Source: Sphingobium sp. EM0848
GTDB lineage: Bacteria > Pseudomonadota > Alphaproteobacteria > Sphingomonadales > Sphingomonadaceae
Assembly (NCBI RefSeq): GCF_013375555.1
Contig: NZ_JABXWB010000001.1
Span: 2,418,001-2,482,000, forward strand
DNA length: 64,000 nt
Reading direction: 5' to 3'
The notes below the pieces were generated by a model. The model was not told where the DNA came from, made no database searches, and worked only from the letters and a program-made list of their open reading frames with translations. The position numbers were made by a program, and so were the translations under genes. Shown here one piece after another: positions 44,425 to 59,142 of this stretch; the stretch's first letter is position 1; every line of letters starts with the position of its first letter.

Positions 44425-47124
44425 TCAACCGCTGTTGCGCAGGGCCGTGGCGATGGCGTTGATCGACAGTTCGATGCCTTCCTTGATGCGGGCATCATCC
44501 TCGCCGCTGCGGTGGCGTTTCATCAATTCGACCTGAAGCAGGTTCAGCGGCTCGATATAGGGCAGGCGCAGGCGGATCGAGCTGTCCAGCGTCGGATTCT
44601 TCTCCAGCAGGCGCGACTGGCCGGTGGCGGCGAGCAGGCCGTCATGGGTCATGTCCCAACCTTCGCGAATGCGATCGAAAATGGCGGCGCCGCGCGACTG
44701 ATCCTCCACCAGCGGCAGATATTGGGCGGCAATGCCCAGATCGGATTTCGCCAGCACCATTTCCAGATTCGCCAGCGCCGATTGGAGGAAGGACCAGTGC
44801 TGCGCCATGTCGGCCAGCAGCGCCTTGTCCTCAAAGGTGCTGAGCGCATGGCCGACGCCATACCAGCCCGGCAGCATCACCCGCGCCTGCGCCCAGCTGA
44901 ACACCCAGGGGATGGCGCGCAAATCCTCGATCCGCGTGCTCTTCGTGCGGCTGGCGGGGCGGGAGCCGATCTTGAGGCCGGAAATTTCCTGAATGGGAGT
45001 AAGCTGGCGGAAGAATTCCTTAAACCCCTCCGTGCCGTAGACAAGGTCGCGATAGGCGGTGAAAGCGGTTTTGGACAGTTCGTCCATGGCGGCGGCGAAG
45101 CGGGCGGCGTCGCGGTCCGAAAGGACTTCGGGTTCCAGGCTGGCGAGCAGCGTGGCGCTGGTCATCGCCTCCAAATTGGTCATGGCGACATCGCGGGTGC
45201 CGAATTTGGCGGCGATCACCTCGCCCTGTTCGGTGATGCGGATGCGGCCCTGCACCGTGCCCTTGGGCTGGGCCTGGATCGCCGCGAAGGACGAACCGCC
45301 GCCCCGCCCGACCGCGCCGCCGCGACCGTGGAAAAGCTGCATGGCGGTGCCGGCGTCGGCGAAGACGGGGGCCAGCGCCTTGCTCGCCTGGAACAGCCCC
45401 CAGGTGGAGGTGATGTATCCGCCATCCTTGTTGCTGTCGGAATAGCCGATCATCACTTCCTGATGCCCGCGCTCCCGCACCACGCCCGCGATTTCGGGCA
45501 GGCCGAAATAGGCGGTCATGATCTTGGGCGCGGCCTCCAGGTCGGCGATGGTTTCGAACAGCGGCACCGCCATGATCGCAACCTGTGGCGGGACGCCATT
45601 GCTGCCCGCGCGCCACAGGCCCGCTTCCTTGAGGATGATGTTCACCTCCAGCAGGTCGGAGACGCTTTCCGCCTTCGAAATGATATAGTGGGTGATGCAT
45701 TGCGGGCCGTAGACGCGGTGCGCTTCGGCCGCCGCCTGCACGATGGCGAGTTCGGAGGCGGTTTCCTCCGAATATTCGGAAAAGCGCGTGCCGAGCGGGC
45801 GGTTGCTCGCCAGTTCGCGGCGGAGAAGCGCGATGCGCGCATATTCGTCAAGTGCGGCATAATCCGCCTCGACCCCGGCCACTTTCAGCAGTTCCGCGAC
45901 GACGCGCTGGTGCACGTCGCTATTCTGCCGCATGTCGAGCGTGGCGAGGTGGAAGCCGAAAGTCTCGACCGCGCGGATCAGGCGACCCAGCGCGCCGCCT
46001 GACGCCAAGGCGCCGTCACCTTCGCTGGCGAGCCCCTGCGCCACGGTGACGAGATCGCGGCGAAGGTCCGACGGACTGGCATAGGGTTCGCCCCTGAGCG
46101 TCGAGGGGCGCGAAGCTTCCTTGCCCACAAGCGTCCGGTATGTGGCGGCAAGGCGGGCATAGATGCCGGAAATGGCGCGGCGATAGGGTTCGTCCTGACG
46201 GCTACGCGACGTGTCGCCACTGGCTTCGGCCAGATCCAGCACCGCCTGCGGCACAAGGGCAAGTTCGGTGGAAAGGGAGAGTTCGGCGCCAAGCGCATGC
46301 AGCGCATTCATATAATAGGTCAGCGCCGCCTCGCAGCCCTTGACCAGCGCGAGCTGCAGTTGCGGCGCCTGCACGAAGGGATTGCCGTCGCGGTCGCCGC
46401 CGATCCAGTTGCCGACGCGCAGGAAGCTTTGCGGGCGGGCGCCCAGCACCCGTTCCCAGCGGGCGTAGAGGGCGGGGAGCACCGGCAGGAAAACATCGCG
46501 GAAATAGGCAAGGACATTTTCGATCTCGTCCGCGACGAACAGCTTTTCGCGGCGCAACGGGCGGGTCTGCCACAACAGGGCGATCTGGCGGAAAATCGCT
46601 TCGTCGAGATTCTCGCCATCGTCCGTCTCGGTGCGTCCCGCATCCTTGAGCAGCATCAGGTCGGCGATGCGGTTCTTGTGATCGATCATGCTCTTGCGCC
46701 GCACCTCGGTCGGGTGGGCGGTGAGGACGGGGACGATCAGGGCGCGGGAGAGCAGGTCGAGAATCGCTTCGCGGTCGATGCCGTGGGATTGGAGCCTGTT
46801 CACGGCGGAGGCGACGTCAGCGCCCGGTTCGGCCTCGACCCCTTGCCGGTCCTCGGCCAGATTGGCGAGCATCGAGAAGAGCATGAAGCCGCGCACGAAG
46901 GACAGCGTGTCGTCAAGGCTGAGCGCGCCAAGGCCGGTATCGACCACATCCGCGCCATGCAGGCCGCGCGCCCTGTCGACCGAGGCCGAACGGATATATT
47001 CGGTCTGCTTGTAGATTTTCTCTCCGCCATAAGCGCGAATGACATCGCCCAGCAACCGGCCGAGATAACGGATGTCAGGGTTCTGCGTGATCGCAGGGGC
47101 GGAGGAAGATGCCGGAGTCGCCAT
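44425..47124 (-). CDS. ppc: Phosphoenolpyruvate carboxylase
   Basis: An 899-residue enzyme adding bicarbonate to PEP to form oxaloacetate, replenishing the TCA cycle. Catalytic motifs are intact: VLTAHPTEVRRKS (active-site His), GNWIGGDRDGNP, GYSDSNKDGGYITSTW, and FHGRGGAVGRGGG. The chain ends ALRNSG rather than the more usual NTG. It is divergent from the HerA-like ATPase gene across 115 bases. Confidence 0.98.
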   Translation of the reverse strand: MATPASSSAPAITQNPDIRYLGRLLGDVIRAYGGEKIYKQTEYIRSASVDRARGLHGADVVDTGLGALSLDDTLSFVRGFMLFSMLANLAEDRQGVEAEPGADVASAVNRLQSHGIDREAILDLLSRALIVPVLTAHPTEVRRKSMIDHKNRIADLMLLKDAGRTETDDGENLDEAIFRQIALLWQTRPLRREKLFVADEIENVLAYFRDVFLPVLPALYARWERVLGARPQSFLRVGNWIGGDRDGNPFVQAPQLQLALVKGCEAALTYYMNALHALGAELSLSTELALVPQAVLDLAEASGDTSRSRQDEPYRRAISGIYARLAATYRTLVGKEASRPSTLRGEPYASPSDLRRDLVTVAQGLASEGDGALASGGALGRLIRAVETFGFHLATLDMRQNSDVHQRVVAELLKVAGVEADYAALDEYARIALLRRELASNRPLGTRFSEYSEETASELAIVQAAAEAHRVYGPQCITHYIISKAESVSDLLEVNIILKEAGLWRAGSNGVPPQVAIMAVPLFETIADLEAAPKIMTAYFGLPEIAGVVRERGHQEVMIGYSDSNKDGGYITSTWGLFQASKALAPVFADAGTAMQLFHGRGGAVGRGGGSSFAAIQAQPKGTVQGRIRITEQGEVIAAKFGTRDVAMTNLEAMTSATLLASLEPEVLSDRDAARFAAAMDELSKTAFTAYRDLVYGTEGFKEFFRQLTPIQEISGLKIGSRPASRTKSTRIEDLRAIPWVFSWAQARVMLPGWYGVGHALSTFEDKALLADMAQHWSFLQSALANLEMVLAKSDLGIAAQYLPLVEDQSRGAAIFDRIREGWDMTHDGLLAATGQSRLLEKNPTLDSSIRLRLPYIEPLNLLQVELMKRHRSGEDDARIKEGIELSINAIATALRNSG

Positions 47125-47239
47125 GACGGTCGATGCTGCATCGCAACAATCTGGCGGTCAAGTGACCTTTGCCCCCAATAGCGCCGAGTTTTGATAGCGG
47201 ACTTGCGCAAACGCCCTGGCCTGGGCCAAAGGACTTCTT

Positions 47240-48694
47240 GTGACCGCCAGCATCAGCATAGGAAATGACGGATCGGGCAATCCCGTTCTGGTCGATGTGG
47301 AAGAATTGCTTGCCACCCGTCTGCTCGTTCAGGGCAATTCGGGATCGGGCAAGTCGCATCTGCTGCGCCGTTTGCTGGAAGAAAGCGCCGCGCTGGTGCA
47401 GCAGGTGGTGATTGATCCCGAGGGCGATTTCGTGACGCTGGCCGATGAATATGGCCATGTGGTGATCGATGCCGGCGACTATAATGAGCGCGAGATCGTC
47501 AAGATGGCGATGCGGATTCGCGAGCATCGCGCCTCGGTGGTGCTGAGCCTCGAATCGCTGGAGTTGGAGGCGCAGATGAAATGCGCCGCGACCTTCCTGT
47601 CGACTTTGTTCGATGCGCCGAGGGATCATTGGTATCCGGCGCTGGTGGTGGTCGATGAGGCGCAGATGTTCGCGCCCGTCGCAGCGGGCGATGTGTCGGA
47701 CGAAGCGCGGCGTCTCAGCCTTGCGGCGATGACCAACCTGATGTGCCGCGGGCGCAAGCGCGGCCTCGCGGGGGTGATCGCGACGCAGCGGCTGGCGAAG
47801 CTGGCGAAGAATGTCGCCGCCGAGGCGTCGAACTTCCTGATGGGTCGGACTTTCCTCGACATCGACATGGCGCGCGCGGCCGACCTGCTCGGCATGGAGC
47901 GGCGGCAGGCCGAGCAAATCCGCGATCTGGAGCGTGGGCGCTTTCTGGGCCTTGGCCCCGCGATCGCGCGGCGGCCGGTGGCGGTGAAGATCGGCGCGGT
48001 CAAGACCGGCACGCGCGGAGGCACGCATAAGCTGATGCCGCCGCCGGTCGCGGTGACGGAGGATTTGCAGGAATTGCTGTTCGCCGGTGCGGGGGAAGAG
48101 GAGGCGTTGCCCCCTCCCCCGCCGCGTGCCGAACCGCCACCCTTGCCGGCCGAGGAATTGATGCGGGCGCTGGCCGCCGCGCCTTCGGCCAAGCCTGCCG
48201 CGCCGGAGCTGGACTTCGGGCAGAATGAGCCGGTCGTCATTGCCGTGCTGGAGGAAATCGTCGCCGATCTGGGGGACGCGCAGCCCAGCGTGTCGACGCT
48301 CTATCAGGATTTCGGGGTGCGGTGCCGGATGAAGGGGCTGCGCACGCCGCCGCTCGACCTGCCCGCCTTCCGTAAGCGCTTTGCCATGGCGCAGGCGGGG
48401 ATGTTCGACGCCGACGATCCGCGCTGGGCCGACGCGATGAAGGCGGCGGAGCCGGTGCCGGAGGATATGCTGGCGCCCTTCCTGCTGATCGCGCGGGCGG
48501 CGATGCAGGGCTTGCCCTGCCCGGACGACGTGGCTTTGGCGCGGGCTTATGGTACCAGTTCGCCGGGCCGCGTGCGGCGGTTGATCGATTATATGGAGAG
48601 ACTGGGCGTGATCGTGGCGCGGACTGATTTCGGCGGGCGGCGTTCCATCGGCGTGCCGCAGCTTGGCCTGAGCACGGCGGCGGCGGAGGGATGA
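47240..48694 (+). CDS. HerA/DUF87-type ATPase
   Basis: A 484-residue protein with a P-loop (VQGNSGSGKSHLLRR), Walker B (ALVVVDEAQMFAP) and a sensor-like GVIATQRLAKLAKN, the layout of HerA/VirB4-like DNA-translocase ATPases. The N-terminal ISIGNDGSGNPVLVDVEELLATRL resembles the HAS-barrel region. After about residue 270 comes a Pro-rich linker and a winged-helix-like C-terminal half. A DNA-handling role is likely but unproven, and no NurA partner is adjacent. The start is GTG 47240. It is coupled to the phosphatase gene by ATGA. Confidence 0.8.
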   Translation: MTASISIGNDGSGNPVLVDVEELLATRLLVQGNSGSGKSHLLRRLLEESAALVQQVVIDPEGDFVTLADEYGHVVIDAGDYNEREIVKMAMRIREHRASVVLSLESLELEAQMKCAATFLSTLFDAPRDHWYPALVVVDEAQMFAPVAAGDVSDEARRLSLAAMTNLMCRGRKRGLAGVIATQRLAKLAKNVAAEASNFLMGRTFLDIDMARAADLLGMERRQAEQIRDLERGRFLGLGPAIARRPVAVKIGAVKTGTRGGTHKLMPPPVAVTEDLQELLFAGAGEEEALPPPPPRAEPPPLPAEELMRALAAAPSAKPAAPELDFGQNEPVVIAVLEEIVADLGDAQPSVSTLYQDFGVRCRMKGLRTPPLDLPAFRKRFAMAQAGMFDADDPRWADAMKAAEPVPEDMLAPFLLIARAAMQGLPCPDDVALARAYGTSSPGRVRRLIDYMERLGVIVARTDFGGRRSIGVPQLGLSTAAAEG

Positions 48695-49158
48695 GCGCTT
48701 CCATCCTCTTCATATGCCTGGGCAACATCTGCCGGTCGCCTCTGGCGGAGGCCGCACTTCGGGCCGAGGCGGAACGCGCCGGGCTGGATGTCGTTGTGGA
48801 TTCAGCCGGGACCGGCGACTGGCATATCGGATCGCCGCCGGACAAGCGGGCACAGGCCGTCGCGCTGCGCCACGGCATCGACATTTCAGGCTATCGTGGG
48901 CGACAGGTGACAGCCGAGGATTTCCGGCGCTTCACCCATATATTCGCGCTGGACGGCGAGAATCTGAAGAATCTTCGACAGATCCGACCAGTGGACGGAA
49001 CGGCAGAGTTGCGGCTGCTGATGGATCTTGTGACGGGACGCGAAGGCAGCGGCATCACCGATCCCTATTTTGGCGATGAGGCCGGGTTCGACGTGACCTG
49101 GGACGATGTGACGCAGGCAGCGAAGGCGATTGTGGCGCGGTTGCAGGAGCAGAATTAA
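48691..49158 (+). CDS. Low-molecular-weight protein tyrosine phosphatase
   Basis: A 155-residue cytosolic phosphatase. The P-loop FICLGNICRSP supplies the catalytic Cys and Arg, and the general-acid Asp lies in ITDPYFGDEAGFDVTWDDV. It dephosphorylates phosphotyrosine or small phosphoesters; no tyrosine kinase or exopolysaccharide gene is nearby. Its ATG overlaps the HerA-like gene's TGA. It is the last clear core gene before the genomic island. Confidence 0.93.
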   Translation: MSASILFICLGNICRSPLAEAALRAEAERAGLDVVVDSAGTGDWHIGSPPDKRAQAVALRHGIDISGYRGRQVTAEDFRRFTHIFALDGENLKNLRQIRPVDGTAELRLLMDLVTGREGSGITDPYFGDEAGFDVTWDDVTQAAKAIVARLQEQN

Positions 49159-49861
49159 ATCTGTTTCCGGCTACCGGGCCGCCCTTTGGTGTCAGTGCAT
49201 AGGGCCAAGCGATTTTGGCCCCCAATCTGGCCCCATTGTTTTGCCAGCCCTTGGATCAACACTCGGCAGCATCCGACAGAGGATGTCTGTTTATCGCGGA
49301 AATCCACAACCTGTTTGGATGGCGCTGGGCTATATTGGAGAATAATGGTGCCGGGGACGGAATCCAAGAAATCAAATAAATATTTGATTTCAAGTTCTTG
49401 ATTGATCGCCATCGCAGGTAAGATGCCACGAAATATACCACGAGGTTCAGATGATGAACCTATCCTGCATATAAGCTTATAATTTTATTGAAGAATTTTG
49501 CAACCGGTATCCACTTTCGACCATCTGCGTCCAAACATTGAGAAATGCTAGGGTTTTTAATGTGGGTTCGGTTCCCACTTGAGCAGATTTTTTTCTAAGT
49601 TCGTGTCGGTGATGGACCCATCCTGCCCGATCATCCCCTGATTTCAAATTCCAGATTCACAAAGCTGGCTTAAGGAGGGCGACAGGTTCCAGGCGCCGGT
49701 CTCGGGATCATTGCCACAGTTGATGCGGCGCGGTTGTGTCGATTACGGCCTACAGAGGCGCCATTCAGCCCACCGCAGGAGGCTCCTAGATAGCCGAACC
49801 CATTGTTGATTCTGTCGCTCTGTCTAGCACGCCGGCGCGGTTCACGACTTCGAGTTAGTTA
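49159..49861. other. Gene-poor 703-base stretch at the left end of the island
   Basis: I see no supportable protein gene here. It is AT-richer than the neighbourhood and holds an AT-rich palindrome (49368-49391) and a small GTGGG/CCCAC hairpin with a later T7 run (49562-49594). A GGCCCCC...GGCCCC-rich patch lies around 49216-49237. It is bounded on the right by the left end of the IS. It may be decayed island sequence. Confidence 0.5.
49368..49391. repeat. AT-rich palindrome
   Basis: GAAATCAAATA-AA-TATTTGATTTC: perfect 11-bp arms around a 2-base centre, within the gene-poor left end of the island. It could be a protein-binding site or a recombination relic; nothing links it to a gene. Confidence 0.6.
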
Positions 49862-49878
49862 GTGCCCGCCCATAAACG
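49862..49878 (+). repeat. Left terminal inverted repeat of the IS
   Basis: GTGCCCGCCCATAAACG, matching the right end at 16 of 17 positions in inverted orientation. Confidence 0.85.
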
Positions 49879-50070
49879 GGGTGTTTTTGCGATCTGGTTG
49901 GGCTTTGGGCTCGGGCTGGATCAGCATCGACAGCGCATTATGAGTTGGACGGGTCGCTGTTTTGACGCCCGAGGGCAGGATTAAGGGGAGACTGGCACTT
50001 CTGCCCGGGCAGTAGACAAGAGGGATCGCCCGGTGGCGTCCGGTGAAGTGTTCTGGGGGTGCGGATCTGA

Positions 50071-51405
50071 CTATGTTGGCTTGAGGCGGGCGAAGATTGC
50101 GAGATTGTTGGCGACGACCGACGACCAGACATAGGATTTGAAGTGGTCGATCCCACGCCATGTGCATCGCGTCAGGCCGTAGGCTCGCTTGAGGCACGAG
50201 ATGCCGGCCTCGATCCCAGCTCGGAAGTTACGCAGCTGGCGATAGATCCATTTGCTCTTGGTCATGTCCTCGATTTTTAGACCGCACTTTTTGTGGAATG
50301 CGACGTCGCGCACTCCGATTGCCTTGGCCTGTTTGAGATTGTCACGACTGGCAAAGCCACCGTCGGCAGCTGACTGGCGCGGTGGTTGGCCATACAAGGT
50401 TACATGCCGTTCGAGCATGGGCAGAAAGCGTGCCGCATCCGCCGGATTGCCATCCTCTATGACGGCGTCGAGGATCATGCCGCTCTTGCCGGTGGAGAAG
50501 TTGAGCTTGTGGCCGTATTGGACATCACGGCCGCCTTTGACGATGATTTCGGCATGCGGTTCAAACAGGCTGACCAACTTGTCGGCCGCCGGTACGCGCT
50601 CGCCGGTGAAGACCCGTCGCCGGGTCTGGTCGATGACCCGTTCGATCAGGGGCAGATAGTGTTCGACCTCAAGACGCCAGGCTGCGCTTTCGATGCTCGA
50701 GGCAAGGTGCAACGCAAGGCTCCGGAGCGATGCCATCGTGGCCTGGGTGGCATCGATCAAGTCCCGGTACAGCCGGGCTTTCCTGTCCTTGCCCCGACTG
50801 TATCGGATCGCCAGCGCCCTTTTCTTGGCGAGCCGCTGGCGATTGCGCCAGGCGACGGCGGTGCCGCCCGGAAGGCTGGCGGCCTGCTTGAGCAAGCGTG
50901 TCATGACCCGCACGCTGTCGAACAGCAACGAACTGTCGCTGGGGGCGTGCATCAGCGCCTCGCACACGGTGCTGTCGATCCGCACGGCCATCCCGCGCTC
51001 GATCTTTTCCTGCCTGGCATCGCTCAGCAACGCCCGATTGATTTGTTCCCAGGACTCCGCCCTGATCCGACTAATCGTCTTTTGCAGCACCGACTTCTTC
51101 GGGCACAATGCCAGGGGCAGCCGGGCGAAGGCGCGAAACGAAGAGGAATCCTCAAGGTGAAAGGCCAGTTCCTCGTAACTCAGCTGGCGATACTGCTTGA
51201 GCACGGCGCATCGCAGAACCGATTCCACCGGCAAACCCTGGCGCCCCGTGTCCTTGATGCCAGCCTCGCCAAGATCAGCCGCCACCAGTGTCAGCAGCTC
51301 ACTGTGTGCCTCGAGCCACCCGGAAATAGCCTTGAGCTCACGTCCGATCTGGTGATCGGCAAACAGATCGAATAGGCTGCTCTGGATGATGCGTTTCTGG
51401 CGCAT
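50071..51405 (-). CDS. IS transposase (DDE type)
   Basis: A 444-residue transposase. The N-terminal DUF772-like domain is clear (LPVESVLRCAVLKQYRQLSY, LAFHLEDSSSFRAFARLPL). A DDE catalytic core follows: first Asp in AVRIDSTVCEALMH, second in SAADGGFAS, and the Glu in FRAGIEAGISCLKRAYGL. The overall pattern fits the IS5/IS1182/ISNCY assemblage; I cannot fix the exact family by eye. ATG 51405 begins MRQKRIIQSS; the open frame extends upstream but without an RBS. Confidence 0.9.
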   Translation of the reverse strand: MRQKRIIQSSLFDLFADHQIGRELKAISGWLEAHSELLTLVAADLGEAGIKDTGRQGLPVESVLRCAVLKQYRQLSYEELAFHLEDSSSFRAFARLPLALCPKKSVLQKTISRIRAESWEQINRALLSDARQEKIERGMAVRIDSTVCEALMHAPSDSSLLFDSVRVMTRLLKQAASLPGGTAVAWRNRQRLAKKRALAIRYSRGKDRKARLYRDLIDATQATMASLRSLALHLASSIESAAWRLEVEHYLPLIERVIDQTRRRVFTGERVPAADKLVSLFEPHAEIIVKGGRDVQYGHKLNFSTGKSGMILDAVIEDGNPADAARFLPMLERHVTLYGQPPRQSAADGGFASRDNLKQAKAIGVRDVAFHKKCGLKIEDMTKSKWIYRQLRNFRAGIEAGISCLKRAYGLTRCTWRGIDHFKSYVWSSVVANNLAIFARLKPT

Positions 51406-51528
51406 TGTCGGCTCCGGCGTGTGTTGATTATGCCATGATCTCAGTGGTTTGAGCCCAAAGCATAACCGACACCGTCGGGCCTTCAAAGCCCGAATTCCTG
51501 GATTAAACGCAATATTTCAATATCTTAG

Positions 51529-51545
51529 CGTTTATGGGCAGGCAC
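51529..51545 (-). repeat. Right terminal inverted repeat of the IS
   Basis: CGTTTATGGGCAGGCAC on the plus strand, the inverted partner of the left end with one mismatch. It is followed by TAGTTA. Confidence 0.85.
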
Positions 51546-51796
51546 TAGTTAGCCCTGATCGTAACAATTGCTGAAAAATATGCGCTGTGTAACAAGCATC
51601 ACGCTTTACGGGACACATATCCTTCCAAGAAGGCCATACTAACGAAATTAACCTTCCAATCAAAGCGATTGTCTGTAGTCGCTGGTGGGAGAAGACCATC
51701 AGCGTCTATGACCGGTGGGGGATGGCACAGATGCCTTATGGGCATCTTGGCCGGTATCCCTTGACGGATGGACCGGTCGGACGTGAGGGAGTGACA

Positions 51797-52162
51797 GTGG
51801 GCGTTACATCGTATCAGCAACGCGTCGAGGAATGGCTCGAAGCCTGCTTCCCGCCTTCGGTAAGGTCGGACCGGGCAGAACGCACTCACCGCTTTCTGGA
51901 GGAAGCCTTGGAACTGGCGCAGGCCAACGGCTGCAACCGGGAAGATGCGATCGCCTTGGTCGAATACGTGTTTGGCCGGCCCAAGGGAGACCCAAAGCAG
52001 GAAGTCGGCGGCGTCATGGTCACGCTGGCCAGCTTGTGCAGCGCCTCTGAAATCCATATGGTCGAGGCTGGAGATGTCGAGCTTGCACGCAATTGGGACC
52101 GGATCGACGCGATCCGGGCGAAGCAGCAATCCAAACCCCATGGTTCCCCTCTGCCCCAATGA
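51797..52162 (+). CDS. MazG-like / NTP pyrophosphohydrolase-like island protein
   Basis: About 121 residues of the small alphaproteobacterial MazG-like family: a helical ERTHRFLEEALELAQANGC segment, EDAIALVEYVFGRPKGDPKQEVGGVMVTLASLC, and C-terminal WDRIDAIRAKQQSKPHGSPLP. The paired E-x-x-E/E-x-x-D acidic helices suggest all-alpha nucleotide pyrophosphohydrolase ancestry, possibly cleaning up (d)NTPs. These occur in prophages and islands. The start is uncertain: GTG 51797 or GTG 51791, both with GAGGGA upstream. It lies 76 bases before the toxin-like gene. Confidence 0.75.
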   Translation: MGVTSYQQRVEEWLEACFPPSVRSDRAERTHRFLEEALELAQANGCNREDAIALVEYVFGRPKGDPKQEVGGVMVTLASLCSASEIHMVEAGDVELARNWDRIDAIRAKQQSKPHGSPLPQ

Positions 52163-52238
52163 ACGGAGGTACCGTCACCCCCTTACTCTCAGAGGACAGG
52201 TTGGCTGACACGTCCCGTCGGCGATCTAGGATGGAATC

Positions 52239-52568
52239 TTGATCACGATTTCCTTCGAAGATGAGCCGCTTCACGACACGTGTATCGAGCTGGAAAAAGC
52301 CGAATTGGCGTTCGGTAGCCTGAATGCGGCTGCCCTCGTCACCTTCATCTCGGAAGCACGCGCCTTCGAAAACGTGCAGGAGCTGATCAGCTTCCTCGGT
52401 GATGAAATAAAAATTTCTACAGACGATTCACTTTCAGTCTCGATTGGTTCAGACTATTGCGCGGCGCTTGTCGTGGCCGCCAAGCGTTTCAAGCGTGACG
52501 CTGATGGCCGGGTGATTTGGTCAAGCGTGACGAGGTTGAAGCTAGTGACAATGTCGAGGGTGCCTTGA
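52239..52568 (+). CDS. HigB/RelE-like toxin of a toxin-antitoxin pair (putative)
   Basis: A 109-residue protein resembling the HigB/RelE killer fold: ITISFEDEPLHDTC at the start, AELAFGSLNAAALVTFISEARAFENVQEL in the middle, and RDADGRVIWSSVTRLKLVTM at the end, matching the dG-x-I-x-W-x-x-V-T-R-I pattern that closes such toxins. If active it would cleave mRNA at the ribosome. The start is TTG 52239 with AGGATGGA upstream. Its TGA overlaps the TTG start of the next gene (TTGA), a typical toxin-antitoxin coupling. The assignment is by eye and moderately secure. Confidence 0.65.
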   Translation: MITISFEDEPLHDTCIELEKAELAFGSLNAAALVTFISEARAFENVQELISFLGDEIKISTDDSLSVSIGSDYCAALVVAAKRFKRDADGRVIWSSVTRLKLVTMSRVP

Positions 52569-53668
52569 AGCAAGCACTTGATTTCACACCCGACTGGTTC
52601 TCAAAGCCCGGTGACTCGCTGCGCGCGCTGATGCTTCGCCGGAGCATCAATGCCCAGGAAGTCGCCGGCCATCTCGATGGCGGGATGAAGACACTGCGCG
52701 GCTTCCTCGACGGCTCGAATCCCATCGACAGCGATCACGCCAGCGTGCTGGCTAAAGCAGTCGGCGGCACGATATCCTTCTGGCTCAAGCGCCAAGAGCA
52801 ATACGAGGTCGCCCTCGAGCGGGCTGTTGACCGCGCCGCCGCCGTCGAGGCTGACGACTGGCTTCTGCTTCCCGTCCCCGGGGAAAAGCCGAAGGGCCGG
52901 CTGACGCAGGAAAAGAAGCGTGACGAGGTCCGCCGACGCCTCCGCTTTTTCAATGTGAGCACGATAGATGCGTGGCAGGCCCGCTACGGGAAGATCTGCA
53001 CCAGCACCATGTTCCGCACCTCTGCGACCTTCGACTCCGACGACGGCGCTGTCCTGATGTGGCTCCGCGACGGTGAGCTAAGCTCGGATTTGGTATCGAC
53101 CAAGCCGTGGAACGCCGACAACCTCCAGGATCGACTGGACAGCATACGCAAGCTATCGAAGCTGCGGCAGCCGGATGTCTTTCTTCCAAAGCTCAAGAAA
53201 CTGTGCGCCGAAGCAGGGGTCGCCGTCGTGGCGAAGAGAGCTCCTACGGGATGCCGCGCGTCTGGGGCCAGCCGACTGGTGGCTCCGGACAAGGCGATGG
53301 TCCTGCTCAGCTTCCGCGGCTTGTCTGACGATAAGTTCTGGTTCACGGTCTTCCATGAGCTCGGCCATCTGATCCTGCATGGCGCCAGAACGTTCGTCGA
53401 CTCCGACATGAACGGGGACGACCTGGACGAGAGCGAAAAAGAGGCAAACGAGTTCGCCTCCCGCATGATCGTACCGGAGGAACGCGTTGAGGAGTTCAGA
53501 AGCCTCCCGGCCGACAAGACGAAGATGATCCGGTTTAGCGGGAAAGCCGGCGTTTCGGTTGGTCTGCTGGTTGGCCAGATGCAGCATCGGAAAATGATCC
53601 GGCCGGACCAGATGAACTACCTCAAGCGACACTGGAAGTGGGACGATCTTGCCGAGGTGATGGACTGA
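52565..53668 (+). CDS. HigA-type HTH protein fused to ImmA/IrrE metallopeptidase domain
   Basis: A 367-residue putative antitoxin/regulator. The N-terminus has DFTPDWFSKPGDSLRALMLRRSINAQEVAGHLDGG, the FxPDWxxxPGD-plus-HTH layout of HigA-like antitoxins. The C-terminal half is an ImmA/IrrE zinc peptidase domain with HELGHLILH and the later Glu in EKEANEFASRMIVP. Such fusions pair with RelE/HigB-like toxins or act as phage/stress regulators. TTG 52565 overlaps the upstream TGA and has GAGGG at good spacing; a longer TTG start at 52517 is less likely. Confidence 0.85.
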   Translation: MKQALDFTPDWFSKPGDSLRALMLRRSINAQEVAGHLDGGMKTLRGFLDGSNPIDSDHASVLAKAVGGTISFWLKRQEQYEVALERAVDRAAAVEADDWLLLPVPGEKPKGRLTQEKKRDEVRRRLRFFNVSTIDAWQARYGKICTSTMFRTSATFDSDDGAVLMWLRDGELSSDLVSTKPWNADNLQDRLDSIRKLSKLRQPDVFLPKLKKLCAEAGVAVVAKRAPTGCRASGASRLVAPDKAMVLLSFRGLSDDKFWFTVFHELGHLILHGARTFVDSDMNGDDLDESEKEANEFASRMIVPEERVEEFRSLPADKTKMIRFSGKAGVSVGLLVGQMQHRKMIRPDQMNYLKRHWKWDDLAEVMD

Positions 53669-53899
53669 CGAGCTGCTTCCGAAGGGCTAACCGACGTAAT
53701 GCATGAAGACCCTCGGGCTTTTCTGCCAGTTACAGAGGGCGTCTTCCATGACCGTCATTCCGACGTTGAGCCCAAGATCCAGCGTATCTAGCTGCAACTG
53801 GACATTCTTGTTCGGCCTACCGCTCTTTCGCACCCCGTCGATGAGAAGACGAGCGCCACTGCCTGGTCCTGTTGCACCGCTTATACCAAGATTCACTGA

Positions 53900-54214
53900 T
53901 CAGAACCCCTGGGCCCAATCGCGCAGGCCGATCGACATGATGCGCCCGGGCTGTTCGACGAGCCTGTTCCAGGCGTCGCAACAGTGATCGACGATGTCCT
54001 CGTGGGAGTTGAACACGCGGTTCGACAGCCAGTTGTCACGCAGGAACTGCCAGATATTCTCCTGCGGGTTGAGCTCGGGGCACTTCGATGGGATCGGGAT
54101 GATCGAGATATTACCGGGCACGTTGAGCTTGGGCGTCAGATGCCAGCCAGCCTGGTCCATGAGCAGCACGGCGTGCGTGTCAGGAGCGACGGCCAGTGAG
54201 ATCTCGGCCAGGTG
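53900..54214 (-). pseudogene. IS630 family transposase, 3' remnant
   Basis: Only the last 105 or so residues of an IS630 transposase remain: HLAEISLAVAPDTHAVLLMDQAGWH (second Asp), then CPELNPQENIWQFLRDNWLSNRVF (Glu of the DDE triad in PQENIW), and the C-terminal SIGLRDWAQGF. Homology stops abruptly near 54214; the upstream two-thirds, including the first catalytic Asp, is missing. It cannot encode an active enzyme. It abuts a MITE-like element on the truncated side. Confidence 0.88.
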
Positions 54215-54240
54215 CAGCCCAAGACACGTGGGAGCGGGGC

Positions 54241-54358
54241 TTAGTAACCCCGATCGAAGAACTCGGTCATCCAGTTTCTGGAGGCCGGGTGGCATGCGCG
54301 CATGTCCAGCCGGCTTGCCGGTAAAGGCGCATGCGCCTTACTTCGGTCAGGTTACTAA
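54241..54358. repeat. MITE-like element, 118 bp, with TA-flanked inverted ends
   Basis: TTAGTAACC (54241-54249) and GGTTACTAA (54350-54358) are perfect inverted ends, and the similarity extends inward imperfectly (CGATCGAAG versus CTTCGGTCA). GTAACC...GGTTAC is flanked by TA on both sides, as for IS630/Tc1-type elements that duplicate TA. The interior contains self-complementary GGCGCATGCGCC. It has no coding capacity. The classification is inference from structure. Confidence 0.55.
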
Positions 54359-54443
54359 CATCCGGCTTTGGCCGTCGCCCCGAGAGGACATAGGTGCGAC
54401 GATAGGCCAAGACTGAAGGCGTCGCCGCTCGAAGGAGACGCAT

Positions 54444-54647
54444 ATGGCAGTGCCTAGCAGCTCGGGCTGGAACGCGATTACTGATTTGCCAAGCGACCGG
54501 AAAGACGGCCGACGGATGCTACTTTGGGACGAAGACCTGCCCGTCATCGGCCGATGGGACGCTGAACGCGAGGCTTGGGAAGACCCCGAGAGCATGAGCG
54601 TCTACGAAGACATCGCCCTCTGGGCTGACATCCTCGCGCCCAAATAA
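54444..54647 (+). CDS. Small DUF551-like protein
   Basis: A 67-residue protein, GWNAITDLPSDRKDGRRMLLWDEDLPVIGRWDAEREAW..., with the pattern W-x-x-I...P-x-x-K-D-G-x-x-x-L-L-W...G-x-W-D seen in small phage and island proteins of the DUF551 type. No function is known. AAGGAGACGCAT directly precedes the ATG. It stands alone between the MITE-like element and the sce7726 gene. Confidence 0.75.
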   Translation: MAVPSSSGWNAITDLPSDRKDGRRMLLWDEDLPVIGRWDAEREAWEDPESMSVYEDIALWADILAPK

Positions 54648-54890
54648 CAGCCGGACTAACGGCTTGCGACCGTGCCCATTATGGCGGAACATGGCGTCGG
54701 TTTCTGACGGCCTGAACCAAGGAAAGAACTGGATGCCAGGCGGCAACGTCACATGATAGCAGGCGTTTTGCAGATTGGGTTGCATTGACCGGTGAAAGCA
54801 TCATCATGCTCTTCGAAATTTGTCCCATATATCGCTTGACATCGAGTTTCGGATGCACTTGAGGCCGCGTTCAGCATCGGGAGGCAGTGA

Positions 54891-55574
54891 ATGGATGAAG
54901 CTCAAATCAAAGCCGCCATCCTCACTCACTTACGTTCGACAGTGCGGCGGGGAAAAAAGCCGACGGTCACCAGCGAATTTTCGTTGGGAAGCGCGTCTGT
55001 TCGTGCCGACCTAGCGATACTTGCGGATGAGTTTATCGGCATCGAAATAAAAAGTGCTGCAGACTCTCTCAAGCGCCTTCCTGCCCAAATGTCTGGGTAT
55101 GCGATGCACTTTGATCGCGTTATTCTTGTAGCTGCGGAGCGCCATCTGAAACGGGTATCCGAGGCTGATCTGTGTGGCGCGGCGTTGTGGTCAATAACAG
55201 CAAACGGCGTAATTCAGACGTTACATGCAGGTGAGGCAAATAATATTGCACCTGCGGCTTACATGAATCTGCTGACGCAAGCGGAGATCGAGCGACTAAT
55301 CTACCGCCCTATGGCGAGAATGCCGATGGCTCCCGGATTAGCTGATAGGCAAATCCGGTTGGCTTTCGAAGAGGCGTTCGAGAAGCGGTACACAGCTTCG
55401 AGCGACGCCTTTTGGCGGGCAGTAGCGCGCAAACGCATACAAGCCGATGACCTTTCACTTTTGAGCCGATTCGCTGAAGAACGGCTACGGCGAAAAGCCC
55501 TGGCCGAGAAACAAGCTGATTTCTGGCAAGGTTGGGCTGACAGCCTCCGTTCGGAATATGCTTTAACCGCTTAG
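54891..55574 (+). CDS. sce7726 family protein, PD-(D/E)xK nuclease-like
   Basis: A 227-residue protein of the sce7726 type. The N-terminal 100 residues contain an apparent restriction-endonuclease-fold core: an early Glu (VTSEFSLGSASVRADL), the Asp of RADLAIL, and E-x-K in IGIEIKSAADSLKRLPAQM, then YAMHFDRVILVA. The C-terminal half is helical and basic (RYTASSDAFWRAVARKR), with no clear family. Known family members sit next to the Beta-like sce7725 family in other genomes. Here it converges with a Beta-family gene, overlapping it by 4 bases. GGGAGG precedes the ATG. Confidence 0.75.
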   Translation: MDEAQIKAAILTHLRSTVRRGKKPTVTSEFSLGSASVRADLAILADEFIGIEIKSAADSLKRLPAQMSGYAMHFDRVILVAAERHLKRVSEADLCGAALWSITANGVIQTLHAGEANNIAPAAYMNLLTQAEIERLIYRPMARMPMAPGLADRQIRLAFEEAFEKRYTASSDAFWRAVARKRIQADDLSLLSRFAEERLRRKALAEKQADFWQGWADSLRSEYALTA

Positions 55575-56641
55575 AGATCCCAATCTTCTTCGGTGTCTCG
55601 CGTTGCGTCTGCGTTCCCGTAAAAGGTCTGAATTTGTAAATGCAAATTCACGCGGGCGGCGGTGGCCTTATTGGGGTTAGAAATCGCAGATGTATCGCCA
55701 GCGGCTGTACGTTCAATCATTTGCGTCCCCCATACGCGCAATGTAGGATCCCAGATCGGTTCTCGCATAAGCGTCGCCGCCTGAAATTTATAAGCGGCGA
55801 AGCCAGTGTCCTCGTCGGAACGGTAAAATTTCCACTGGTTTTGTAAGGGGTAGTCAATTCGAGGGGCAGGTGTGCCGCCACCTCCGAGTTGCTTGGTCGC
55901 ACGAACGCTTCCGCGATCGCTATAAATTAGTTTTCTTGTTCCGACCTGCGAAGCTACTTGGTCAAAAAGTAGCCGCTCATAGATTCCTTGCTCAGATAGA
56001 TTCTTGAAATTGTCGGGAAATGATGACGCAGAAATTGAGGCTTGTGCCAACGGTGCATACCGGGCCACCGTATTTATATAGCCAACAGCTAGTGCTGCTG
56101 CCTGCAAGTGATCTTTTGTTGCCCTTCCATAATCTAAGACGAATGTGACATCACTACCGCCCCCGGTATGCTCTGCAATAGTTGCGGCAAGGATGTCGAT
56201 TGCGGGAAATGCGGGTTTAGGAACAATTACAAAAAGGCCCCGATCAAGCTCATGCAGGCACCGAATTTGGGTCGGTAAATCAGAAGTCTGCTGGATTTGA
56301 AGAGCCGGTATAAAATTAGGCTGGTCTCGGATAAATGCACACCAGTTTGAGTATGCCGCTGTTGCATCTCTTAGCGTGTTGAGTTGGTGATGCACGGGGC
56401 GAATGGCTTCCGTGCTGTCAGGGTCAGCGAGGGACACAACACAGGGTCTGGAGCCGTAAGCGAGGTGTAGTCGCTCCAGTCCTCGTTCAAGGTTATGAGA
56501 GCTGCTCCAAGGCCTGAGGTGGACAATTGGAAGAAGCGCGTCTTTGGTTTGGCCAGGAAGTTCCTCCAATGCTCTCATTTCCGCCGGATAGAGAGATAGC
56601 AATGGAAGATATGAAACCTCACCTAGATTACGAAGCGCCAT
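55571..56641 (-). CDS. Beta family protein (T4 Beta-protein-like), last gene of island operon
   Basis: A 356-residue protein with the Beta_protein pattern: SYLPLLSLYPAEMRALEELPGQTKDALLPIVHLRPW at the N-terminus, VTFVLDYGRATKDHLQAAAL in the middle, and SEQGIYERLLFDQVASQVGTRKLIYSDRGS followed by PRIDYPLQNQWKFYRSDE at the end. The family occurs in phages and bacteria and has no established activity. It starts 13 bases after the ImmA/IrrE gene with GAGAGG upstream, so it belongs to one transcript with that gene and the two-TM protein. Confidence 0.75.
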   Translation of the reverse strand: MALRNLGEVSYLPLLSLYPAEMRALEELPGQTKDALLPIVHLRPWSSSHNLERGLERLHLAYGSRPCVVSLADPDSTEAIRPVHHQLNTLRDATAAYSNWCAFIRDQPNFIPALQIQQTSDLPTQIRCLHELDRGLFVIVPKPAFPAIDILAATIAEHTGGGSDVTFVLDYGRATKDHLQAAALAVGYINTVARYAPLAQASISASSFPDNFKNLSEQGIYERLLFDQVASQVGTRKLIYSDRGSVRATKQLGGGGTPAPRIDYPLQNQWKFYRSDEDTGFAAYKFQAATLMREPIWDPTLRVWGTQMIERTAAGDTSAISNPNKATAARVNLHLQIQTFYGNADATRDTEEDWDL

Positions 56642-56654
56642 TGATCCCTCTCAA

Positions 56655-57146
56655 CTATAATCCCAATCTGATCTTCATAGCAGCTTCCGAAACGCCAAAT
56701 CTTTTCGAAAGATGTTCTAATATGTCTTCTATATTAAGGGACTCGCTATTACTTTTCACCCGCTCGACTAAATTTTCTGGCATAATAATGTCGGCTGCAA
56801 GGCGATTTGCCTCAGCTTCCATCCGACTGGACAAGCCGGAGCGATAGAGAACGTCGTCAGTAATACCGTTTCCGATCTGGTCGCGATGCAACAAGAAATG
56901 CGCAATTTCGTGAGCGACCGTGAATCTTTGCCGCGCAGGGGCATCGTGACGGTTTACACGGATGATATAGCTTTCGCCATCGGGCCGGATTTCACCAGAA
57001 ATACCGGGCGCGAGAGTAGCTCCTTTGACTTTGAGCCCAAAGGATTTTGCTAGACCTGCCAAATCTACCGGTGCCTCCAGTTGATGCTGCTGTACCTGCG
57101 ATCGCATCACTGATGGCAAATTGGACCATTCTCGGCTCACTGACAT
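56655..57146 (-). CDS. ImmA/IrrE family metallo-endopeptidase
   Basis: A 163-residue stand-alone zinc peptidase. HEIAHFLLHRDQ gives the HExxH site, and the third ligand Glu lies in MEAEANRLAADIIMPENLVE. The start domain resembles ImmA (VQQHQLEAPVDLAGLAKSFGLKV), and the end matches the usual LSKRFGVSEAAMKIRLGL. ImmA cleaves phage/ICE repressors; here no HTH partner is adjacent, so the target may be the two-TM or Beta neighbour. ATG 57146 is preferred over TTG 57152; AGGA lies 6-7 bases upstream. Confidence 0.88.
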   Translation of the reverse strand: MSVSREWSNLPSVMRSQVQQHQLEAPVDLAGLAKSFGLKVKGATLAPGISGEIRPDGESYIIRVNRHDAPARQRFTVAHEIAHFLLHRDQIGNGITDDVLYRSGLSSRMEAEANRLAADIIMPENLVERVKSNSESLNIEDILEHLSKRFGVSEAAMKIRLGL

Positions 57147-57155
57147 ACACAAATC

Positions 57156-57626
57156 CTACTCGCCCTCAGAGGGCTGCTCATTATCCTGCTCCTCTAACTC
57201 GTCTTCTCTGCCGCCGCCAAAAATGACGGCATCCACTCGCCTCTGTATCATCTCGGAGACGGTTGAAGAATCGAGAATTTTCTCAGCTTCACGCTTAAGA
57301 TACTCCCGAATTTCAGCTTGCTGCATATGGCGACCGACCTCTTCGGTGGCTACCTTCTTCGCAGCTCTTTTCGCAGCTTTCTCGGATGCCCCTCTAACTT
57401 GATCGAAGCCCCAGAAAGCCGCGATTGCCAAGCCCACCCCCAGCACTGTGATAATTAAAGCCACCGCAGCTAAAAGCGTAGCCGCCAAATCCGGATAGCT
57501 CCAGTTCCACGGCTTAAGATTGCCCGCGATAATCAGCGCTACAGCTGACCCTCCCCCTCCCGCAATCGCGCCGAGGAGGCACCATAGAACCCGACTAGCC
57601 GATGGCTCTGTCGTTTCGCTTGCCAC
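57156..57626 (-). CDS. Two-TM coiled-coil membrane protein, first gene of island operon
   Basis: A 156-residue protein I cannot assign to a family. After a short N-terminus come two helices (VLWCLLGAIAGGGGSAVALIIAG and LAATLLAAVALIITVLGVGLAIAAFWGF), then a cytoplasmic charged coiled coil (EKAAKRAAKKVATEEVGRHMQQAEIREYLKREAEKI) and an acidic tail rich in Glu/Asp (GREDELEEQDNEQPSEGE). It starts with GTG 57626. Only 9 bases separate its stop from the ImmA/IrrE start. The layout suggests a membrane sensor/effector paired with a protease. Confidence 0.75.
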   Translation of the reverse strand: MASETTEPSASRVLWCLLGAIAGGGGSAVALIIAGNLKPWNWSYPDLAATLLAAVALIITVLGVGLAIAAFWGFDQVRGASEKAAKRAAKKVATEEVGRHMQQAEIREYLKREAEKILDSSTVSEMIQRRVDAVIFGGGREDELEEQDNEQPSEGE

Positions 57627-57755
57627 TACCTATGCACCCCCAACCGGTTCTCGTACATCACTATCTAAGCTCAACAATTGATCTGGAGCAACGGCATCGC
57701 CATCTCACCTCTAATGGCGGCCAACTACGCAAGATCGAAATCGCCAAACGATCTC

Positions 57756-58907
57756 TCAGGTCATCACTTTGAGGCAATACGCTCCCCATTCTTCCATGAG
57801 CTTCCGCCTCTTCTCGAGAAGGTTGCCGCGGCGGTAAGCTGCCTCTGTCTTGTCCTTGACCCGGTGAGCTAGAGCAGCCTCCGCAATTTCGCCGGGGTGA
57901 TTGGTTTCCTCGCTGACCCAGTCCCGGAAAGCTGAACGAAATCCGTGAGCAGTCACGTCCTCCTTCATCTCGCGGAGCAATTTCGTGAGCGTCATGTCGC
58001 TCATCGGTGCGTCACCTCTGGCTCCAGGGAACACAAGCGAACGCGATCCGATCCGCAGGTCCCGGCATCGCTCGAGGATCGCAAGCGCCGGTGCAGACAG
58101 GGGAATGACATGCTCGCGGGCCGCCTTCATGCGCGCGGCCGGTATGGTCCACAGCTTCTCTTCTAGGTCGAACTCTTCCCACGCCGTGCCTCGGACCTCG
58201 CCTGATCGCACGGCAGTCAGGATGGCAAAGCGGAGCGCAAGCCGGCTGAAGGATTCTCGCTCCGTGAGCCTCACCATGAATGCGGGCACCTTCGCATAGG
58301 ACATGGCGGCAAAATGCCCCTCCTTCTTGGGCTGTCGCGGAAGACCCTTGGTGATCGCGCGCATAGGCGCTTCAGTTTCGCGATAGCCCGAGGCGTAAGC
58401 CCAATCGAGAACGGTGCCAATCCGCTGCCGGACCCGTCGCGCCGTCTCGGGCTTGGCGAGCCAGATATCCGACAGCACGTTCCGGATCATTGGCCCTGTA
58501 ATCTCATGAACCTGCACATGGCCGATCTGCGGGAACACGTAGGTCTCGAGCGTCTGGAGCCACTGCTTCTCGTGCTTCTCATTCCGCCATGTCTTGCTGT
58601 GCGCGGCAATCACCCGGGCTGCCGCCTGCCGGAATGTGGGAATGCCTTGCGCCTTACGCCGCTCGAATATCGGATCCAGCCCGAGTTCGACCCAAGTGCG
58701 GATTTCTCGTGCCCGCTCTCGGGCTGTCGCCAGCGAGACTTTGGACGCGCTGCCCAGACCAAAGTCGCGTCGGTTGCCATTCTTCTGCACCCGGCACATC
58801 CAGCTCTTGCCGCCGCCAGCCTGAATCACAAGAAACAGGCCGTCGCCATCGCCGAGCCGCCCGGGGCGTGTTGCTGCCTTCACAGCGGTAGCGGAGAGCT
58901 TTCCCAT
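57756..58907 (-). CDS. Site-specific tyrosine integrase (P4-like)
   Basis: A 383-residue integrase with the N-terminal DUF4102 DNA-binding domain (LGDGDGLFLVIQAGGGKSWMCR), a core-binding SAM-like domain, and the catalytic domain: Arg in TAVRSGEVRG, H-x-x-R in AHGFRSAFRDW, and the His/Tyr pair in LAHRVKDKTEAAYRRGNL. P4-type integrases favour tRNA 3' ends, matching its place beside tRNA-Ser(GGA). ATG 58907 begins MGKLSATAVKAATRPG; the upstream extension lacks homology. Confidence 0.93.
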   Translation of the reverse strand: MGKLSATAVKAATRPGRLGDGDGLFLVIQAGGGKSWMCRVQKNGNRRDFGLGSASKVSLATARERAREIRTWVELGLDPIFERRKAQGIPTFRQAAARVIAAHSKTWRNEKHEKQWLQTLETYVFPQIGHVQVHEITGPMIRNVLSDIWLAKPETARRVRQRIGTVLDWAYASGYRETEAPMRAITKGLPRQPKKEGHFAAMSYAKVPAFMVRLTERESFSRLALRFAILTAVRSGEVRGTAWEEFDLEEKLWTIPAARMKAAREHVIPLSAPALAILERCRDLRIGSRSLVFPGARGDAPMSDMTLTKLLREMKEDVTAHGFRSAFRDWVSEETNHPGEIAEAALAHRVKDKTEAAYRRGNLLEKRRKLMEEWGAYCLKVMT

Positions 58908-59051
58908 GCCACCAAATCTCCCACATTCTTTCCCACATTTCCAATCGGTCACCGGTGGACTGGCAGGGATGAACGTGGATGCGAATCACGCTGAAAGCCG
59001 CAGAAAAGCTGGGCTTTAGTGATTCGGAACGGATGTGAAAGGACAGGGTGG

Positions 59052-59142
59052 TGGCGGAGCGGGAGGGATTCGAACCCTCGATACGCTTTTGACGTATACT
59101 CACTTTCCAGGCGAGCGCCTTCGACCACTCGGCCACCGCTCC
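59052..59142 (-). tRNA. tRNA-Ser (GGA anticodon), island attachment locus
   Basis: Read on the minus strand it is a 91-nt class II tRNA with encoded CCA. Acceptor GGAGCGG/CCGCTCC with discriminator G, D-arm GGCCGAGTGGTCGAAGGC, anticodon loop CTGGAAA (anticodon GGA, reading UCC/UCU), a long variable arm, and T-arm GAGGGTTCGAATCCCTC. Its 3' end borders the integrase side of the island. The gene remains intact, as is typical when the element restores the tRNA 3' sequence. Confidence 0.97.

What the first reader, a model, noticed from the sequence alone, without database searches (positions are those of the whole stretch)
55571..57626. Tight three-gene island operon: two-TM coiled-coil protein, ImmA/IrrE protease, Beta-family protein
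Seen: three genes on one strand with gaps of 9 and 13 bases, each with its own RBS, directly downstream of the island integrase. The first encodes two membrane helices plus a charged coiled coil and an acidic tail, the second a stand-alone HExxH peptidase, and the third a Beta_protein member. Known: ImmA/IrrE proteins cleave regulators in mobile elements, and Beta-family proteins have no assigned activity. Inference: the protease controls or is controlled by the membrane protein or Beta protein, as a stress- or phage-triggered module. This is the best candidate in the window for an undescribed system.
Basis: partly seen in the sequence, partly recalled or inferred. Interest (0 to 1): 0.75.

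Follow-up and report, generated by a model that had tools for sequence, protein, structure and literature searches.

The report
Four-gene protease-armed phage-defence-like module
A small mobile DNA island carries four linked genes (a membrane protein, a protein-cutting enzyme, a barrel-shaped regulator and a probable DNA-cutting enzyme) that recur together in many bacteria and look like a protease-equipped relative of two known bacterial anti-virus systems.

Summary
The three genes are real: 2TM/coiled-coil protein, stand-alone M78 (ImmA/IrrE) peptidase, Beta_protein. Layout and two families match phage P4 gop-beta-cII, a published anti-phage system whose Gop is toxic without Beta; P4 Gop also has two TM stretches plus a charged helix but no detectable sequence similarity to the window's 2TM protein. 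PD-lambda-2, where an HTH-ImmA protein precedes a Beta relative, shares the other link. In 33 full-length Beta loci from neighbour-blind scans, an ImmA gene lies directly upstream in 23, cII is convergent in 22, and 2TM-ImmA-Beta occurs in 12 (3 of these 2TM calls by hydropathy only). Quartets recur in Alpha- and Gammaproteobacteria and on a plasmid, their proteins' distances correlate (r 0.72-0.92), and in one Sphingomonas 2TM and ImmA are fused. AlphaFold models: Beta is a TIM barrel, cII a PD-(D/E)XK nuclease fold, both with invariant polar residues. Most likely a protease-gated, toxin-antitoxin-like abortive-infection module. Defence activity, toxicity and the protease substrate are inferred, not shown. 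New variant of a known kind.

The parts
57156..57626 (-). 2TM coiled-coil protein (156 aa), Gop-like in layout only; proposed membrane effector
   Evidence: a profile built from it finds 29 of 2566 ORFs at E<1e-4, 27 of them the gene 5' of an ImmA gene (three of these loci are repeats of others)
56655..57146 (-). Stand-alone M78 (ImmA/IrrE) peptidase, HEIAH motif, no HTH domain reported; best PADLOC match capP (alternative TTG start at 57152)
   Evidence: H-E-x-x-H in 21 of 21 and a downstream Glu in 20 of 21 quartet copies
55571..56641 (-). Beta_protein family (P4 beta / PADLOC beta), predicted TIM barrel
54891..55574 (+). sce7726 / P4 cII family protein, convergent with Beta (4-nt stop overlap), predicted PD-(D/E)XK nuclease with invariant E29, D40, E52, K54, Q66
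57756..58952 (-). Tyrosine integrase of the island (context, not a module part)
   Evidence: PF22022, PF13356, PF00589 over cut-off
59052..59142 (-). tRNA-Ser(GGA), likely integration target; DNA homology to four relatives ends at its 3' end (59051/59052)

Best explanation
A four-gene, toxin-antitoxin-like immune module of the gop-beta-cII / PD-lambda-2 kind. The 2TM coiled-coil protein sits in the inner membrane (charged helix and acidic tail in the cytosol) and is the growth-arresting effector, as Gop is in P4 (inferred). Beta, a TIM barrel with a conserved set of polar residues, binds and restrains the effector (inferred from P4). The stand-alone M78 peptidase, nearest to the CapP/PprI type that ssDNA activates, is the trigger: on phage-made DNA damage it cuts Beta or the effector's cytosolic part, which frees the effector and stops the infected cell (inferred). 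The convergent PD-(D/E)XK protein is a separately transcribed nuclease arm that cuts invading DNA and/or makes the ends that the peptidase senses (inferred). Shown here: families, predicted folds, recurrence of the quartet, correlated divergence, one natural 2TM-ImmA fusion.
For: Same order and convergent layout as P4 gop-beta-cII; Beta 26% identity over 92%, cII 27%, E 2e-14. gop-beta-cII protects against lambda and P1 and gop is toxic without beta (PMC9122126 passages). PD-lambda-2 needs its Beta relative for defence and carries an ImmA/IrrE-type peptidase (PMC9519451 passages). ImmA directly upstream of Beta in 23 of 33 full-length loci and cII convergent in 22 of 33 (with 46, 59, 97), against 6 M78 genes in the whole own genome. 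Distances among 21 quartets: ImmA-Beta r 0.92, Beta-cII 0.86, 2TM-Beta 0.80, each 0 of 2000 permutations. Fusion of 2TM and ImmA in L037. No other family in 3 or more of 20 quartet loci except an integrase in 3. Models. ssDNA activation of PprI and CapP (PMC10904395 passage).
Against: No toxicity, cleavage or phage data for any quartet. The 2TM protein is not detectably homologous to Gop (scores like shuffled sequence). P4-type loci have no ImmA and PD-lambda-2-type loci no 2TM protein, so neither is universal; 9 of the 33 Beta loci have cII but no ImmA directly upstream and 1 has neither. In PD-lambda-2 the peptidase-bearing protein was itself toxic and Beta was not needed to neutralise it, so roles may differ. 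cII is missing next to 4 of the 12 neighbour-blind 2TM-ImmA-Beta loci. Correlated distances can also come from shared host history. The fusion is a single case.
Confidence: 0.55

Rival explanations
1. RosmerTA-like logic: the ImmA protein is the antitoxin that keeps the 2TM toxin inactive, and Beta is the phage sensor that breaks this, as in PD-lambda-2 where Beta is needed for defence but not for neutralisation.
For: ImmA proteases are described as hub antitoxins paired with diverse toxins (PMC10440598 passages); PD-lambda-2C is required for defence only (PMC9519451 passages); 2TM and ImmA genes lie -53 to +18 nt apart in the 21 quartets measured, by longest-ORF starts, and are fused in L037.
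Against: Window ImmA has no HTH reported and matches capP (1e-32) far better than RmrA (2e-12); in P4 Beta is the described partner of Gop.
Confidence: 0.25
2. Island addiction/stabilisation module without a defence role: loss of the island frees the membrane toxin.
For: Sits beside an integrase and tRNA; a second HigA-like/M78 pair lies nearby.
Against: Both nearest characterised relatives protect against phages; a nuclease partner is unusual for pure addiction (inference).
Confidence: 0.12
3. Regulatory ImmA/ImmR-type module that controls integrase expression and island excision after DNA damage.
For: Integrase is adjacent and the peptidase resembles CapP/IrrE.
Against: No HTH regulator gene inside the quartet; the nearest HTH-like protein found is the HigA-like/M78 protein 52517-53668, 1.2 kb beyond cII and with its own partner ORF. 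An integrase related to the window's was found in only 3 of 20 quartet loci within the flanks held, though L028 has another annotated integrase.
Confidence: 0.05

Closest known systems
gop-beta-cII of satellite phage P4 (Rousset 2022, PMC9122126)
   Same: Beta and cII families, gene order, convergent cII, and a two-TM, charged-helix protein in the first slot; the P4 integrase also falls in the window integrase's profile
   Different: Extra stand-alone M78 peptidase between the membrane protein and Beta; 2TM protein not homologous to Gop by sequence
PD-lambda-2 (Vassallo 2022, PMC9519451)
   Same: ImmA/IrrE peptidase gene upstream of a Beta-family gene
   Different: No HigB-like gene and no HTH on the window peptidase; Beta matches P4 beta (4e-41), not PD-Lambda-2_C (0.01); a membrane protein and cII are present
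CapH-CapP of CBASS and PprI/DdrO
   Same: Closest peptidase type: PADLOC capP 1e-32, solved CapP 7t5t E 4.1e-6 and IrrE 8slm 6.5e-7
   Different: No capH match among the 8 window proteins scanned and no HTH partner inside the quartet
RosmerTA (RmrA-RmrT)
   Same: M78 peptidase next to a putative toxin
   Different: RmrA-type proteins often carry an HTH (PMC10440598 passage); none is reported on the window peptidase, which matches RmrA less well than capP

Membership tests
gop-beta-cII system | Beta family gene | tested here: met
   PF14350 1.9e-53; PADLOC beta 4e-41
gop-beta-cII system | cII/sce7726 gene convergent with beta | tested here: met
   PADLOC cll 1.7e-25, NF033832 1.2e-25; 4-nt overlap
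gop-beta-cII system | gop homologue | tested here: not met
   PADLOC gop model does not match the window 2TM protein or those of L035, L045 and L024; BLASTP and hhalign no better than shuffles; only the 2TM + charged-helix layout is shared
gop-beta-cII system | anti-phage activity, first gene toxic without beta | not testable with these tools
   needs the bench
PD-lambda-2 | HigB-like first component | tested here: not met
   the first gene is a 2TM protein; no PD-Lambda-2_A match
PD-lambda-2 | HTH (HigA-like) fused to a peptidase | tested here: not met
   165-aa ORF with M78 only; no HTH family reported; PADLOC PD-Lambda-2_B only 4.7e-9, over the peptidase part
PD-lambda-2 | Beta-related third component | tested here: inconclusive
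   PD-Lambda-2_C E 0.01 against beta 4e-41; same Pfam family, other half of the quick Beta tree
CapH-CapP | CapP-type stand-alone M78 peptidase | tested here: met
   capP 1e-32; CapP 7t5t 4.1e-6
CapH-CapP | CapH HTH partner next to a CBASS operon | tested here: not met
   no capH or CBASS match for the 8 window proteins scanned; further genes of the window were not scanned
PD-(D/E)XK nucleases (for the cII protein) | fold and active-site residues | tested here: met
TIM barrels (for Beta) | eight beta-alpha units closing a barrel | tested here: met

The most novel reading that the evidence does not exclude
A protease-triggered membrane-killing pathway in one operon: a DNA-damage-sensing M78 peptidase cuts the TIM-barrel inhibitor Beta (or the effector's tail) to release a two-helix membrane effector, while a PD-(D/E)XK nuclease makes the DNA ends that switch the peptidase on. 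It would be the ancestral or intermediate form that links gop-beta-cII (effector kept, protease lost) with PD-lambda-2 (protease kept, membrane effector replaced by HigB or other first genes), with Beta as the common hub.
Probability: 0.25. Interest if true: 0.8.

Novelty: new variant of a known kind. Interest (0 to 1): 0.62.

Why it matters
Two anti-phage systems found separately (gop-beta-cII and PD-lambda-2) share one hub family, Beta, and this quartet carries parts like those of both, so their unexplained steps (what Beta does, what the ImmA peptidase cuts, why cII is there) become testable in one small operon. The PADLOC gop model misses the membrane proteins tested, so tools that demand gop would not call these loci (inference). 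Fold predictions give concrete residues to mutate in two proteins whose activity is unassigned.

Tried and rejected
Considered and rejected: (1) chance neighbourhood of three unrelated island genes: rejected by recurrence. (2) Homology of the 2TM protein with P4 Gop: not shown, kept as resemblance of layout only. (3) A fifth conserved partner: among 539 flanking ORFs of 90 aa or more in 20 quartet loci, no family shared by 3 or more loci except an integrase in 3; flanks held are up to about 6 kb. (4) An empty site for the whole island: the left-flank gene and the right-flank gene are far apart in two relatives that I compared by eye (G024: 95 kb; G008: 256 kb), and no direct repeat of the tRNA end longer than 11 nt was found at 40000-57700, so only the right edge is placed. 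(5) PDB relatives of Beta by sequence: none at E<=1; of cII: four weak matches to a C-terminal stretch, best R.SwaI 0.022, not used. (6) Structure neighbours of Beta are many unrelated TIM barrels with tied Z, so no enzyme class is claimed; the best viral match is an uncharacterised Gordonia phage Powerball protein. (7) The first 2TM profile was contaminated by the fused ORF of L037 and pulled in ImmA proteins; it was rebuilt without that ORF. (8) The weak LeoBC match of the 2TM protein (7.4e-4) was not followed: it covers a TM/helix stretch and was absent from the three other 2TM proteins scanned.

Literature: 'gop-beta-cII' as a term was seen in one paper, PMC9122126 (40 of 42 papers listed); three of the 20 papers listed for sce7726/sce7725/'beta family protein' hold sce7726 (20 of 384 listed, seen as listings only); others (25 of 10,392 listed; 6 of 6) gave the PD-lambda-2 paper and no description of the quartet. 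The library holds open-licence papers and no preprints, and the lists were capped, so absence from print is not claimed beyond these searches.

Limits: the 2TM assignment of L011, L024 and L069 rests on hydropathy only (in L069 a 219-nt gap separates it from ImmA); L020's ORF shows one TM; the HTH on L004, L008, L009, L062, L063 and L067 is by resemblance to tested members (PADLOC tested on L003, L007, L014, L022, L060). L017 has an ImmA-like ORF 591 nt upstream and was counted as not adjacent. Partial or broken Beta loci left out of the 33: L025-L027, L071, L073. Gene spacings use longest-ORF starts. The Beta tree is a quick one with long branches, and L011 and L024 may be misplaced.
Full report
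OBSERVATION. The three ORFs exist as described. With the ATG start of the peptidase the gaps are 9 and 13 nt. The proteins are a 156-aa two-TM protein with a charged helix and a very acidic end, an M78 peptidase of 163-165 aa (Pfam 1.9e-19) and a Beta_protein member (1.9e-53). Their G+C is 49-55% against 64.3% for window positions 1-48000. They follow a tyrosine integrase beside tRNA-Ser(GGA); in four relatives the DNA homology to the window ends at the tRNA 3' end, 59051/59052, so the right edge of the island is placed there. The left edge was not found.

THE MISSED FOURTH GENE. Directly 3' of Beta, on the other strand and overlapping its stop by 4 nt, lies 54891-55574, a sce7726-family gene (NCBIfam NF033832, over cut-off) that PADLOC names 'cll' (1.7e-25). 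In satellite phage P4 the genes gop, beta and cII stand in the same order with cII convergent. Window Beta and P4 beta share 26% identity over 92%, the two cII proteins 27%, E 2e-14. P4 Gop, 133 aa, has two hydrophobic stretches and then a long charged helix and polar end, the same layout as the window 2TM protein, but there is no detectable sequence similarity (BLASTP; hhalign one search gives probabilities under 1%, as with shuffled Gop).

WHAT IS KNOWN OF THE RELATIVES. From passages of PMC9122126: gop-beta-cII protects E. coli against lambda and P1, and Gop is toxic without Beta. From passages of PMC9519451: PD-lambda-2 consists of a HigB-like protein, a HigA-like HTH fused to a peptidase, and a third component related to the P4 antitoxin; the second is toxic alone and rescued by the first, and the third is needed for defence but not for neutralisation. 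From a passage of PMC10904395: ssDNA activates CapP's cleavage of CapH, as it does PprI. From passages of PMC10440598: ImmA-type proteases are hub antitoxins of RosmerTA systems.

RECURRENCE. Three scans with the Pfam Beta family alone, blind to neighbours, covered 100 relatives, 385 genomes of the class and 398 of the phylum, with overlap. They gave 32 different genomes with Beta and 33 full-length Beta loci; partial or broken copies L025-L027, L071 and L073 were left out. Architectures: 2TM-ImmA-Beta with convergent cII 8 (window, L006, L011, L021, L024, L064, L065, L069; the 2TM of L011, L024 and L069 by hydropathy only, and 219 nt from ImmA in L069); 2TM-ImmA-Beta without cII 4 (L012, L016, L019, L020); HTH-ImmA-Beta with cII 4 (L003, L004, L014, L062); HTH-ImmA-Beta without cII 6 (L007, L008, L009, L022, L063, L067); another ImmA-Beta with cII 1 (L068); Beta with cII but no ImmA directly upstream 9 (L010, L013, L015, L017, L018, L061, L066, L070, L072); neither 1 (L023). 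So ImmA lies directly upstream in 23 of 33 and cII is convergent in 22 of 33. The own genome has 6 M78 genes in 5.64 Mb, so adjacency by chance would be of the order of one in a thousand per locus (inference, taking about 5000 genes).

A Beta-seeded scan of genome contigs gave 21 loci, of which 17 hold all four genes as unbroken ORFs (L034-L036, L038-L041, L043-L046, L048-L053); L037 has 2TM and ImmA fused and cII in two ORFs; L042, L047 and L054 are decayed. L034 is the same contig as L006, and L051 gives the same gene lengths and scores as L021. Hosts of unbroken sets include Sphingomonas, Sphingopyxis, Novosphingobium, Magnetospirillum, Brevundimonas, Gluconobacter, Acinetobacter, Siccibacter, Photobacterium, Halomonas, Alteromonas and Oceanobacter. 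A quartet sits on a Neorhizobium conjugative plasmid (L028), and an interrupted one in an Aeromonas record (L033). Of two viral contigs, L056 has the quartet and L055 is cut off at the 2TM end.

UNITY OF THE MODULE. A profile grown from the window 2TM protein finds 29 of 2566 ORFs at E<1e-4; 27 are the gene 5' of ImmA (loci L034, L051 and L056 repeat L006, L021 and L038), the other two belong to interrupted or decayed quartets, L033 and L042. In 21 quartets the 2TM-ImmA spacing is -53 to +18 nt and ImmA-Beta -23 to +17 (longest-ORF starts), and 10 of 21 have the same 4-nt tail-to-tail overlap of Beta and cII. Pairwise distances correlate: ImmA-Beta 0.92, Beta-cII 0.86, 2TM-Beta 0.80, ImmA-cII 0.76, 2TM-ImmA 0.72, each 0 of 2000 permutations; shared host history may add to this. 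No other family is shared by 3 or more of 20 quartet loci in the flanks held, except an integrase in 3. In Sphingomonas sp. 7/4-4 (L037, titled a complete chromosome) 2TM and ImmA form one open frame of 336 aa: a single case, but it suggests a functional link.

BETA AS HUB. In a quick tree of 44 Betas one half (11 rows) holds the 7 HTH-ImmA loci and 4 without an adjacent ImmA; the other (33 rows) holds the 27 2TM-ImmA loci (the decayed L042 among them), the 2 gop loci and 4 others. The four labels need 6 changes, against a shuffled mean of 15.9. HTH-ImmA proteins match PADLOC PD-Lambda-2_B at 8e-66 to 3e-85 (5 tested) and their Betas match PD-Lambda-2_C (3 tested), while window-type Betas match 'beta' (window, L035, L045; L045 also PD-Lambda-2_C at 3.5e-14). 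Convergent cII also occurs with PD-lambda-2-type pairs: 4 of the 10 neighbour-blind HTH-ImmA loci (L003, L004, L014, L062) and the viral contig L060. In plasmid records the beta, sce7726 and XRE genes lie under one match in 7 of the 12 rows shown, of 19 records; three of the seven are plasmids of equal length.

MECHANISM. The best-supported reading is a toxin-antitoxin-like abortive-infection module. Gop's role suggests that the 2TM protein is the effector and Beta its brake. The peptidase type suggests a DNA-damage switch; as no HTH partner lies inside the quartet, its likely substrate is Beta or the effector. The nearest HTH-like protein, the HigA-like/M78 protein at 52517-53668, belongs to a separate pair. 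The nuclease arm is on the other strand and so transcribed separately. Roles, trigger and substrate are inference; families, predicted folds, layout and recurrence are shown. The PD-lambda-2 results, where the peptidase-bearing protein was toxic, leave room for the RosmerTA-like alternative.

VERDICT. It is a new variant of a known kind and not a wholly new system. By the strict gop test it is not a member of gop-beta-cII, although it plausibly works like it.

Noticed in passing
window 52239-53668 (+): A second ImmA-bearing, TA-like pair in the same low-GC stretch: a 109-aa ORF overlapping a 383-aa protein with a HigA-like match (TIGR02607 8.5e-6, below its cut-off) and M78 (PADLOC PD-Lambda-2_B 3.7e-17), 1.2 kb from cII and without a Beta gene next to it.
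   Followed up: partly
window 53900-54295 (-) and 50071-51486 (-): ORFs that look like an IS630-type transposase fragment and a longer IS transposase (by eye, no search), suggesting that the island's left part is eroded by insertion sequences.
   Followed up: no
window 51722-52162 (+): A 146-aa ORF that resembles MazG/NTP-pyrophosphohydrolase-type proteins by eye; not searched.
   Followed up: no
L037 4985-5995: Natural fusion of the 2TM protein and the ImmA peptidase in one 336-aa frame in Sphingomonas sp. 7/4-4.
   Followed up: yes
L060 2210-2746 and 2733-3992: In a viral contig, the gene before a PD-lambda-2-type HTH-ImmA-Beta-cII set encodes a DUF6932 protein (PF22014 6.7e-31) instead of a HigB-like one, hinting at exchangeable first genes.
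   Followed up: partly
L045, L046, L048-L050, L052: Gammaproteobacterial 2TM proteins are longer (195-234 aa), with (by eye) a signal-peptide-like first helix and a longer, probably periplasmic segment before the second helix.
   Followed up: no
L030 (Pasteurella phage Pmp11) 3604-5896: A temperate-type phage with a CI-like repressor carries a P4-style set beside it: a 131-aa hydrophobic/coiled-coil ORF, Beta and convergent cII.
   Followed up: partly
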